A DNA stretch of 64,000 nucleotides from Bacteroidota bacterium (GTDB lineage: Bacteria; Bacteroidota; Bacteroidia; Chitinophagales; Chitinophagaceae), in NCBI GenBank assembly GCA_030706735.1, contig JAUZNZ010000019.1, positions 30,483-94,482 of the forward strand, read 5' to 3'. This document shows positions 19,670 through 28,298 of this stretch, piece after piece (the first letter of the stretch is position 1; the number at the start of each line of letters is the position of its first letter). The notes below the pieces were generated by a model. That model was given only the letters and a program-made list of their open reading frames with translations. It did not search any database and was not told the origin of the DNA. Both the position numbers and the translations under genes were made by a program.

Positions 19670-20011
19670 CTAATTACTCAATGATCTCCGGTATTCCAGC
19701 GGCGTCAGTCCATAATATTTCTTGAACATGGGAATGAACTTGCTGCTGCTCCGGTAACCGGTGACTGCCGAGATCTCTTTGATGGACATCTCGGTGCTGG
19801 ACAGGAGCTCTGCCGCTTTCCGCATACGGATATCCGTCAGATAGCTGTACACGGGCCGTTCAAACAATTGTTTGAACCCGTTCTGCAGTTTGATGGAATT
19901 GACCCCTGCCCGGTGGCTGAGGTTCTTGATGGTGATGAATAAAGGATAGTGTTCTTCCAGATAGCACTTGATGTCCGTGAGTGCATCGAGGTCGCTTCTC
20001 TTTAGGTTCAT
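19670..20011 (-). CDS. short AraC-type HTH protein (DNA-binding domain only)
   Basis: LSHRAGVNSIKLQNGFKQLF and EISAVTGYRSSSKFIPMFKKYYGLTPLEYR double HTH. Confidence 0.82.
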   Translation of the reverse strand: MNLKRSDLDALTDIKCYLEEHYPLFITIKNLSHRAGVNSIKLQNGFKQLFERPVYSYLTDIRMRKAAELLSSTEMSIKEISAVTGYRSSSKFIPMFKKYYGLTPLEYRRSLSN

Positions 20012-23104: not shown

Positions 23105-24631
23105 CTATTCGGCCAGGTATCCCTTCGCCAGCTCCTGGAAATCGGCTATCTGTTGGCGTTGCCAGGCCTCGTCCCGGCCCAATTCCTTTGCCAGGAGCGC
23201 TGCCACGGCCGGAGCGGCCTGCATGGCTGCCCGCGCATCCAGCAACAGCATTCTGGTCCTGCGGCTCAAGGCATCCTCCACCGTCATGCAGGATTCCTCC
23301 CTTGCCGCCAAAGCGATCTCGGCGAGCGTGTAGGGCAGGCCCGCGTGGAGCGGCTTATTCAGAGAGGGATCCTCCCCGGCGATCTTTTCCGCGGCCAGCT
23401 TATCGCTGCCATCCCATCCATGGATCAGCAAATGGTTGGTCACGCATTCGCGATCCGGCAGCCCGGTGCGCCCGATGGCCACATTGACCGTATCCTCGGC
23501 CATGCGCCGGTAAGTCGTCCACTTCCCTCCGGCAACCGTGATCAACCCTGAAGCGGATACCGTGATCAGGTGATCCCTCGACAGCTCCGCGGTCTTCTTT
23601 GAACTGCCCTTCACCAGTGGCCTCAGGCCGGCGAAGACGCTGAGAATGTCCTTTCGCCCGGGAGGCTTGACCAGGTACCGCCCGATCTGGCGCAGGATGA
23701 AGTCGATCTCTTCCGGCAATGCCGTCGGCTCTTCGCTGACGGTAGATACCGGCGTGTCGGTTGTGCCGACGATGATCCGTCCATGCCAGGGTACGGCAAA
23801 TAACACGCGGCCGTCATCGGTATGAGGTACCAGGATGGCGGCCTCGCCGGGTAAGAAAGAATGATCGAGGACGATATGCACGCCCTGGCTCGGCGCAATG
23901 ACGGACTCGCTGCCCGGCTCGTCCATCTGCAGCACGCTGTCCGTGAATACGCCGGTAGCATTGACGACGACTTTCGCACGCAGGCGGTGCTGCGATCCGT
24001 GCATGCCTTCGCGCATGAGCAAGCCCGTGACCATCCCCTCTTTGTCCTTCAGCAGCCCTTCCACCCGGCAATAGTTCAACACGAGCGCCCCCTGTTCCGC
24101 GGCGGTCCGGGCAAGGCTGACGGCCAGCCTGGCATCGTCGAACTGCCCGTCATGATAGAGCACGCCGCCCCGCAATCCGTCCGCATCGAGGGTCGGCGCG
24201 AGTTCCAGCGTTTCTTCTTTCGAAAGGATCCGTGAGGTTCCCAGACCCAGGCTGCCCGCCATCCAGTCATAGACCTTCAGGCCGATGCCATAATAAGGGC
24301 CTTCCCACCATTTATAGTTCGGAACGATGAAGGATTGATCCTTGACCAGGTGGGGAGCGTTCCTGCGCAGTATGCCGCGTTCATGCAGGGCTTCCGTGAC
24401 GAGCTTGATATTGCCTTGCTGCAGATAACGGACGCCGCCATGTACCAGTTTGGTCGAGCGCGAGGATGTTCCTTTGGCAAAATCGTGCTGCTCCAGGAGT
24501 ACCGTCCGGAACCCGCGCGAAGCCGAGTCCACCGCTACCCCCAATCCGGTCGCGCCGCCGCCGATGACGATCAGATCCCATTCCCGGTCCTCGCCTGCTT
24601 CGAGGGAACTAAGCATGTCCGCGCGCTTCAT
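23105..24631 (-). CDS. glpD: glycerol-3-phosphate dehydrogenase
   Basis: [55 protein letters not shown] at 24631 overlaps the glpK stop (ATGA). Confidence 0.95.
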
Positions 24632-26154
24632 GCGTTGCCCTCCGTACCAGCCGTACCCTCGTCGGCCCACGCTATCGCCGCCGTCACCGCGCGCTGCCAA
24701 CCCTTCAGCAGCTTTCCGACCCGCAGAGGATCCATGGCCGGCTCGAATCGCCTATCGATCTGCCATTGCTTTTGTATATCATCCGTAGAAGGCCAATAGC
24801 CGACGGCAAGGCCGGCCAGGTAGGCGGCGCCCAGGGCCGTCGTTTCCGTGACGACCGGGCGAATCACCGGGGCCTGGAGGATATCTGCCTGGAATTGCAT
24901 GAGCAGGCCATTCGCTGTGGCGCCCCCATCGACGCGCAGCTCTTTGATGGGGATGCCCGAATCCGCCTCCATGGCCTTCAGGACGTCATAAGTCTGGAAG
25001 GCGATGCTCTCCAGCGCCGCCCGGGCGATGTGCGCCTTTCCCGTGCCCCTCGTCATCCCGAACAGACTACCCCGCGCATATTGGTTCCAGTGAGGCGCGC
25101 CGAGCCCCGCGAAGGCGGGGATCATATAGACCCCGTCGGAATCGTCGACCTCTGCCGCCAGCGCCTCGACTTCGGCGGAAGAGCGGATCAGGTGGAGGCC
25201 GTCCCGCAGCCACTGAACGACGGCGCCTGCGATGAAGATGCTGCCTTCCAGGGCGTACTCCAAGCGGTCTCCGATGCGCCAGGCAATGGTCGTCAGCAGG
25301 TTATTCTTCGATTGAACGGCCTGGCCGCCCGTATGCATGAGCATGAAACAACCTGTGCCATAGGTATTCTTCACCATGCCCGGCCTGGTGCATTGCTGGC
25401 CGAATAGCGCCGCTTGCTGATCCCCGGCGATCCCGGCGATGGGTATGCCGGATGCGGGCGCGACGATGCTGCCACTATTCCCATAGATTTCGCTGGAGGC
25501 ACGCACCTGGGGCAACAGCGAAGGCGGAATATCGAAGAGACGCAACAGTTCCGGATCCCACTGGCCCGTGCGGATATTCAATAACAGCGTCCTTGACGCA
25601 TTGGTGCTATCGGTAATATGGAGCTTGCCGGCGCTGAGCTGCCAGACCAGCCAGCTATCGACGGTGCCGAACGCCAGTTCACCTTTTTCCGCGCGCGACC
25701 TGGCGCCGGATACATTATCCAGGATCCATTTCAGTTTGGTGGCGGAGAAGTATGCGTCGATGACCAGGCCGGTACGTTCGCGGATCATCGGACCGTGGCC
25801 TTCGGCGTTAAGGCGGTCGCAATATCCGGCCGTACGGCGGTCCTGCCAGACTATCGCGGGATAGACCGGTTTCCCGGTAGACCGTTCCCACACGATCGTC
25901 GTTTCGCGTTGATTGGTAATGCCGATGGCGGCAACCTCCCTGGTTCCGACGTTCCTCTTGGCCAGGGCTTCGGCCATAACGCCATATTGCGATGACCAGA
26001 TCTCCTCCGGGTCATGCTCCACCCAGCCGGGCTGCGGATAGAACTGCCGGAACTCTTTTTGGGCCAGGCTGACGATCTGGCCCGCATGGTCAAAGAGAAT
26101 AGCGCGGGAACTGGTGGTGCCCTGGTCGAGGGCGAGGATATATGGTCCTGGCAT
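24628..26154 (-). CDS. glpK: glycerol kinase
   Basis: [48 protein letters not shown]. Confidence 0.97.
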
Positions 26155-26216
26155 GTATCGTTGTTAATTCGGGGTAATTTAGGAAAATTTTGCCGGGAAA
26201 GGTCCTTTTCCGTAAT

Positions 26217-26236
26217 TTACGTAATCAATTACGTAA
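26217..26236. promoter_or_regulatory. palindromic operator candidate TTACGTAAT-CA-ATTACGTAA
   Basis: 9-bp perfect arms in the glpK / MarR-GNAT divergent intergenic region. Confidence 0.65.
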
Positions 26237-26258
26237 TTACTTATAATCCTCAAAACGA

Positions 26259-27236
26259 ATGAGTATGGATTTTTATGAACAGACTGGCAAGCGGGCGCTC
26301 GGCAGCCGTCTTCGTCGGCTGAGTGAGCGGATCACCGAACAGGCCGCCGCTATTTACGATCTATATGAAGTGGATTTGCAGCCCAAATGGTTTCCGGTAT
26401 TTCATGCGCTGTCTGAAGGCAGGCAGCGGTCGATCACCGAAATCGCGCGGGAGATCGGGCATACGCATCCTTCGGTCAGCCAGATCGTCAAGGAGATGAT
26501 CGCCAAGGGCTATGTCACGGAAAAAAAGGCATCCGGGGACGGCCGAAAGAATTTTGTGATCCTGACGCCCGCGGGCCGCGCGCTGCATGAAAAAATGAAA
26601 CCGCAACTGGAGGATGTGCAGGAGGCCATCGAAACGGCCATGAGCGAGACCTGTCACGATCTGTGGCGCGCGATCGGGGAATGGGAATTCCTGCTGGAGC
26701 AAAAGGACCTCTTACGGCGCGTCCAGGAGGCGAAGAAGCGGCGGGAGAGCGGCAACGTGGAGATCGTAGACTACAAGCCCGCATACAAGCAGGCATTCAA
26801 ACAACTCAATGAGGAATGGATCACCCGATGGTTCAGGATGGAAGAAGCGGATCATCAGTCCCTCGATCATCCGCAAGAATATATTTTAGATAAAGGAGGA
26901 TACATCGCCATCGCGCTCTACGGGGGCGAACCCGTCGGCGCCTGCGCGCTGATCCCCATGCCGGCCGATCCCGCAAGAGGCAGGCAAGCCGGAGTATTCG
27001 AACTGGCCAAAATGGCCGTATCGCCCCGCGCACAGGGCAAGGGCATCGGGCTGTTGTTGGGTCAGGCATGTATCGATAAGGCCAGGGCGCTCGGTGCGCG
27101 GAGCGTGTACCTGGAAAGCAATACGCGGCTCAAACCAGCCATCAGTCTCTACCATAAATTGGGCTTTCGCAAGACCACGGGCCACCCCTCGCCGTATGAA
27201 CGGAGCGACATCCAGATGGAATTGATGCTCGGGTGA
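26259..27236 (+). CDS. MarR-family regulator fused to GNAT acetyltransferase
   Basis: N-terminal wHTH (SITEIAREIGHTHPSVSQIVKEMIAKGYV), C-terminal GNAT (AVSPRAQGKGIGLLLGQACIDKARALG). Confidence 0.9.
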   Translation: MSMDFYEQTGKRALGSRLRRLSERITEQAAAIYDLYEVDLQPKWFPVFHALSEGRQRSITEIAREIGHTHPSVSQIVKEMIAKGYVTEKKASGDGRKNFVILTPAGRALHEKMKPQLEDVQEAIETAMSETCHDLWRAIGEWEFLLEQKDLLRRVQEAKKRRESGNVEIVDYKPAYKQAFKQLNEEWITRWFRMEEADHQSLDHPQEYILDKGGYIAIALYGGEPVGACALIPMPADPARGRQAGVFELAKMAVSPRAQGKGIGLLLGQACIDKARALGARSVYLESNTRLKPAISLYHKLGFRKTTGHPSPYERSDIQMELMLG

Positions 27237-27280
27237 AAATATTCTTTCACGAAACTTGCAGGAATCGGATTTTAGCATTT

Positions 27281-27297
27281 ACTTTGCCATTCAAAGT
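27281..27297. promoter_or_regulatory. operator candidate ACTTTG-ccatt-CAAAGT
   Basis: 6-5-6 inverted repeat 6 nt upstream of the ATG at 27304; same motif at 28276-28292. Confidence 0.65.
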
Positions 27298-27303
27298 GCT
27301 TTT

Positions 27304-28259: not shown

Positions 28260-28275
28260 TTTTTTTTATACTTAA

Positions 28276-28298
28276 ACTTTGAATTACAAAGTACTTTG
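28276..28298. promoter_or_regulatory. operator candidate ACTTTG-aatta-CAAAGTACTTTG
   Basis: Same 6-5-6 inverted repeat as 27281-27297 plus a third half-site creating the palindrome CAAAGTACTTTG. Confidence 0.65.

What the first reader, a model, noticed from the sequence alone, without database searches (positions are those of the whole stretch)
26155..26258. Palindromic operator between glpK and a MarR-GNAT gene
TTACGTAAT-CA-ATTACGTAA (26217-26236) has perfect 9-bp arms, extended imperfectly by GTAAT/ATTAC, and lies 22 bp upstream of the MarR-GNAT start and about 63 bp from the glpK start. TATAAT follows at 26242-26247. This suggests MarR-GNAT self-regulation and possible control of glycerol catabolism, linking an acetyltransferase domain to the glp operon.
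Basis: partly seen in the sequence, partly recalled or inferred. Interest (0 to 1): 0.6.

Follow-up and report, generated by a model that had tools for sequence, protein, structure and literature searches.

The report
Autoregulatory operator of MarR-acetyltransferase gene
The palindrome is a real DNA control site, kept in front of this regulator-plus-acetyltransferase gene across the phylum Bacteroidota, and it most likely lets the protein switch off its own gene; the neighbouring glycerol genes are probably bystanders.

Summary
The palindrome is real and exactly where stated (TTACGTAATCAATTACGTAA, 26217-26236). Palindromy alone is weak evidence: the window holds several comparable inverted repeats. 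Conservation settles it. All 99 MarR-GNAT orthologous loci examined (94 distinct; Puia, Chitinophaga, Mucilaginibacter, Pedobacter, Dyadobacter, Flavobacterium, Prevotella and others) carry TTRCRTAA-N4-TTAYRTAA with at most 2 mismatches, 3-55 bp (median about 12) upstream of the start codon. Its left arm overlaps the Bacteroidota -7 promoter box (TAnnTTT in 78 of 99), and a TTG -33 element is enriched at the matching distance. Two relatives with separate MarR and GNAT genes keep the site before MarR; GNAT-only relatives lack it. Best reading: the MarR domain represses its own promoter by covering the -7 box and start site. Almost every genome has only this site, so the regulon is probably this gene alone.

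The glycerol link is not supported: glpK is the neighbour in one genus only (5 of 80 named loci), the site keeps its distance to MarR-GNAT but not to glpK, and 19 glpK genes elsewhere have no site. TATAAT is not the likely promoter. Inducer and acetylation substrate are unknown. A well-conserved but ordinary MarR arrangement in an apparently uncharacterised fusion family.

The parts
26217..26236 (+). Operator: 20-bp palindrome TTACGTAAT-CA-ATTACGTAA, the conserved core TTRCRTAANNNNTTAYRTAA
   Evidence: conserved in 99 of 99 orthologous loci at no more than 2 mismatches
26212..26240 (+). Extended operator region including the conserved outer A (left) and T/TTA (right) flanks
   Evidence: Position profile: A at -1 (94 of 99), T at 22 (89 of 99); these pair in 86 of 99
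26213..26220 (+). Probable -7 box (TAATTTAC, fits TAnnTTTR except the last base) of the MarR-GNAT promoter; its right half is the operator's left arm
   Evidence: TAnnTTT in 78 of 99 orthologs at this place; sigma-A consensus TAnnTTTG at -12 to -5 in Flavobacterium psychrophilum (PMC9723704); start site about 26225 inferred
26190..26192 (+). Probable -33 element TTG, 20 bp before the -7 box
   Evidence: TTG enriched at this spacing: 60 of 99 loci against 4-13 in shifted windows
26259..27236 (+). MarR-GNAT gene (325 aa from ATG 26259; ortholog-conserved start at 26265): MarR residues ~39-96, GNAT ~187-303 with acetyl-CoA motif QGKGIG
   Evidence: Pfam MarR_2 9.1e-14 and Acetyltransf_1 7.8e-17; alignments A1, A2; model pLDDT 90.5
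24628..26154 (-). glpK (glycerol kinase), divergent neighbour; bystander in the preferred reading
   Evidence: NCBIfam PRK00047 1.7e-247, TIGR01311 above cut-off; neighbour only in the window's genus

Best explanation
The palindrome is the autoregulatory operator of the MarR-GNAT gene. A dimer of the N-terminal MarR domain most likely binds the 20-bp site, which covers about -8 to +12 of the gene's own promoter (part of the -7 box and the start site), and so blocks transcription until a ligand or a modification releases it; the derepressed product then carries its own acetyltransferase domain. Shown here: the site, its conservation, its overlap with a Bacteroidota-type promoter, its link to the MarR coding sequence and its near-uniqueness per genome. 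Inferred: binding, repression, the start site and induction. glpK is a chance neighbour in this genus.
For: All 99 loci (94 distinct) have the core with 0-2 mismatches (78/16/5), 3-55 bp upstream of the ATG; random 150-bp windows of the same loci mostly give 5-7 mismatches (raw sequences). Most arm positions stay complementary, including 9 loci with the paired change G5-C16 to A5-T16. TAnnTTT overlaps the left arm in 78 of 99, and TTG is enriched about 20 bp upstream of it. At position 3, G (promoter-like) and A (symmetric) are about equally frequent, as expected if the base serves both box and arm. Separate MarR-GNAT gene pairs L024 and L025 keep the site immediately before MarR, and nine GNAT-only loci lack it. 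Five related MarR or MarR-GNAT paralogs have different palindromes at the same kind of place. In 33 of 36 named genomes the exact core occurs at MarR-GNAT; other hits number 11 against 23 for the reversed control pattern.
Against: No binding or expression data. The window's own -7 box ends in AC rather than TG. The window's gap to the start is longer than the median. A distant activator or another MarR protein could in principle use the site.
Confidence: 0.88

Rival explanations
1. The operator is a shared divergent control site through which MarR-GNAT also represses glpK-glpD-glpF.
For: The genes are divergent with a 104-bp spacer; glpK is next door in 11 genomes of the genus searched; in this window the site is only 62 bp from the glpK ATG, so it may touch the glpK promoter here.
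Against: Gap to glpK runs 62-134 bp (sd 22) while that to MarR-GNAT is 4-22 bp (sd 5). None of 19 non-adjacent glpK genes has the site. glpK is the neighbour in 5 of 80 named loci, one genus. G033 has MarR-GNAT but no glpK match at E 1e-100.
Confidence: 0.08
2. The palindrome is a site for a different regulator that controls MarR-GNAT, and MarR-GNAT binds elsewhere.
For: Binding not shown.
Against: The site tracks the MarR gene across genera and in split-gene form and is nearly unique in the genome; a separate regulator would normally also mark its own promoter. Paralogous MarR genes have paralog-specific palindromes.
Confidence: 0.05
3. Chance or structural palindrome, e.g. a terminator or mRNA hairpin.
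For: The window contains other inverted repeats of similar length.
Against: Conserved sequence, position and promoter overlap in 99 of 99 loci; AT-rich with no T-run terminator; no Rfam match in the window.
Confidence: 0.01

Closest known systems
Autoregulated MarR-family repressors (MarR, MepR, OhrR, SlyA types; PDB 3eco/4l9j MepR, 2pfb/2pex OhrR)
   Same: MarR winged-helix domain, ~20-bp palindromic operator overlapping its own promoter, often next to a divergent gene (general knowledge of the family)
   Different: A catalytic GNAT domain is on the same chain; operator sequence TTACGTAA-N4-TTACGTAA; no second target gene is evident
Pairing of MarR with a GNAT acetyltransferase as separate genes (L024, L025)
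   Same: Same two domains in the same order, same operator before MarR
   Different: Separate adjacent genes rather than one polypeptide
Type III lysine acetyltransferases: N-terminal regulatory domain plus C-terminal GNAT (PMC11254643)
   Same: Overall order regulatory domain then GNAT
   Different: Type III effector domains (cAMP, NADP or amino-acid binding) are ~300-400 aa; here the regulatory domain is a DNA-binding MarR domain; substrate unknown

Membership tests
MarR-family autoregulator | MarR winged-helix DNA-binding domain | tested here: met
   Pfam MarR_2 E 9.1e-14, above cut-off; MepR, OhrR and SlyA structures matched by profile
MarR-family autoregulator | Palindromic operator in its own promoter, conserved among orthologs | tested here: met
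   99 of 99 loci, overlapping the -7 box in 78
MarR-family autoregulator | Protein binds the operator and represses; ligand or oxidation releases it | not testable with these tools
   Needs EMSA/footprint and reporter assays
GNAT acetyltransferase | GNAT fold with acetyl-CoA P-loop motif (Q/R-x-x-G-x-G/A) | tested here: met
   Acetyltransf_1 7.8e-17; QGKGIG at residues 259-264 with G260 and G264 invariant in both alignments; fold match to 3d8p (TM by target 0.85) and other GNATs
GNAT acetyltransferase | Catalytic activity and substrate | not testable with these tools
   Nearest folds are GNATs of varied or unknown substrate at 15-23% identity
glp-operon regulator | Conserved linkage of gene or operator to glp genes | tested here: not met
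   Linkage in one genus only; no site at 19 non-adjacent glpK genes

The most novel reading that the evidence does not exclude
A one-gene regulatory circuit in which a repressor's sole DNA target is its own promoter and its output is the acetyltransferase on the same chain, with acetylation of the MarR domain or of the inducing molecule closing the loop. Acetylation of the MarR-family protein SlyA is reported to inhibit its promoter binding in Yersinia pestis (cited in PMC11254643).
Probability: 0.2. Interest if true: 0.6.

Novelty: new member of a known kind. Interest (0 to 1): 0.33.

Why it matters
It gives a clear, testable operator for a widespread MarR-GNAT fusion family in Bacteroidota for which I found no study in the paper library. 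Because the regulon appears to be the gene itself, the compound that lifts repression is a good candidate for the acetyltransferase substrate, which makes the family's function directly screenable. It also removes a mistaken lead to glycerol metabolism.

Tried and rejected
Rfam scan of the window: no match. The second genomic copy of the 20-mer (L002, 2 mismatches) lies upstream of what reads as a LacI-type regulator; the weaker site on G000:C11 lies in an intergenic stretch and is not a good palindrome; both set aside. TATAAT 26242-26247 as -10: rejected, not in line with Bacteroidota promoters and not evident in orthologs. A conserved neighbour that would reveal the substrate: none; the most frequent same-strand downstream gene is in 7 of 80 loci. 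Fold search gave only generic GNAT matches. Paper searches for MarR-GNAT proteins or a TTACGTAA MarR operator gave nothing relevant. The glpK promoter was not resolved by eye, so an effect on glpK in this one species is not excluded.

Full report
Observation. The palindrome is at 26217-26236 as described. Within 3 mismatches it is unique in the window; the genome has one further copy at 2 mismatches, upstream of what reads as a LacI-type regulator gene. Palindromy alone is modest evidence: the window has other perfect inverted repeats with 9-bp arms, and a shuffled 104-bp spacer of this composition contains one in about 0.6% of cases.

Conservation. A protein search of 100 related genomes found 18 further near-full-length orthologs (56-76% identity). 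Every one has the palindrome directly before the gene, including those without glpK next door. A scan of the named-genome collection returned 80 loci from across Bacteroidota, and again all have it. Most arm positions remain complementary, and nine loci show the paired change G5-C16 to A5-T16. The loci share ancestry, so they are not independent trials; but the surrounding spacer is not conserved while the palindrome is (per-position profile).

Promoter. In Bacteroidota the housekeeping sigma factor recognises TAnnTTTG at -12 to -5 (PMC9723704). In 78 of 99 loci TAnnTTT sits exactly so that its last two T are the start of the left operator arm, and TTG is enriched about 20 bp further upstream (60 of 99 against 4-13 in shifted windows). 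In the window this gives TTG 26190-26192, 20 bp, TAATTTAC 26213-26220, and a start near 26225 (inferred). A protein on 26217-26236 would cover roughly -8 to +12. The TATAAT at 26242 would then lie within the transcript.

Which protein. The site follows the MarR domain. In two relatives where MarR and GNAT are separate adjacent genes the site (1 mismatch) is immediately before MarR, while nine GNAT-only loci have none. More distant MarR or MarR-GNAT paralogs carry other palindromes at the equivalent place, e.g. TTGTATAAGCGCTTATACAA and TTGTGAAAGTACTTTCATAA. In 36 named genomes the exact core is found at MarR-GNAT in 33, and hits elsewhere (11) are fewer than those of a reversed control pattern (23); the same holds in the genus. 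The pattern was derived from these sites, so weaker targets could be missed.

Glycerol. glpK, a glpD-like dehydrogenase and a MIP-family channel gene are correctly read. But glpK is the neighbour only in the window's genus (5 of 80 loci; 11 genomes). The gap to glpK varies from 62 to 134 bp while that to MarR-GNAT stays at 4-22 bp, and none of 19 glpK genes located elsewhere has the site (4-7 mismatches). In G030, G032 and G012 the region upstream of glpK instead carries the ACTTTG-N5-CAAAGT motif that lies downstream of MarR-GNAT in the window, which suggests that the MarR-GNAT gene has been inserted into or lost from this interval (inference).

The protein. MarR_2 and Acetyltransf_1 domains are clear; the acetyl-CoA loop QGKGIG is present and G260 and G264 are invariant. 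The model is confident (pLDDT 90.5, pTM 0.72) and its C-terminal part matches many GNAT folds, best 3d8p of unassigned substrate. Substrate and inducer cannot be told from sequence.

Verdict. The glycerol connection and the TATAAT promoter are not supported. The layout is ordinary for MarR proteins, the fusion family appears unstudied, and its apparent single target makes it a convenient subject.

Noticed in passing
27280-27298 and 28275-28293: A second operator-like palindrome TACTTTG-N5-CAAAGT occurs twice (expected 0.06 within 2 mismatches for the window), before an unannotated protein plus HTH_34 winged-helix gene pair and before a B12-binding/radical SAM gene; the same motif lies upstream of glpK in G030, G032 and G012. 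It looks like the HTH_34 regulator's own operator.
   Followed up: partly
   Followed up: yes
L183, L185, L188, L189, L190: Related MarR and MarR-GNAT paralogs have their own distinct palindromes at the promoter (e.g. TTGTATAAGCGCTTATACAA, ATATATAAGCGCTTATATAT, TTGTGAAAGTACTTTCATAA), a ready set for studying MarR recognition specificity.
   Followed up: partly
L093, L095, L098, L117, L138, L139, L140, directly downstream of MarR-GNAT: A same-strand gene family follows MarR-GNAT closely in 7 of 80 loci (protein MSYENKIAIVIKNDLQTWQKLNVASFLASS...), possibly co-transcribed; family not identified here.
   Followed up: no
19858-19877: Perfect inverted repeat GTTCAAACAATTGTTTGAAC; by coordinates it falls inside the predicted 19670-20011 minus-strand reading frame, so probably chance.
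   Followed up: no
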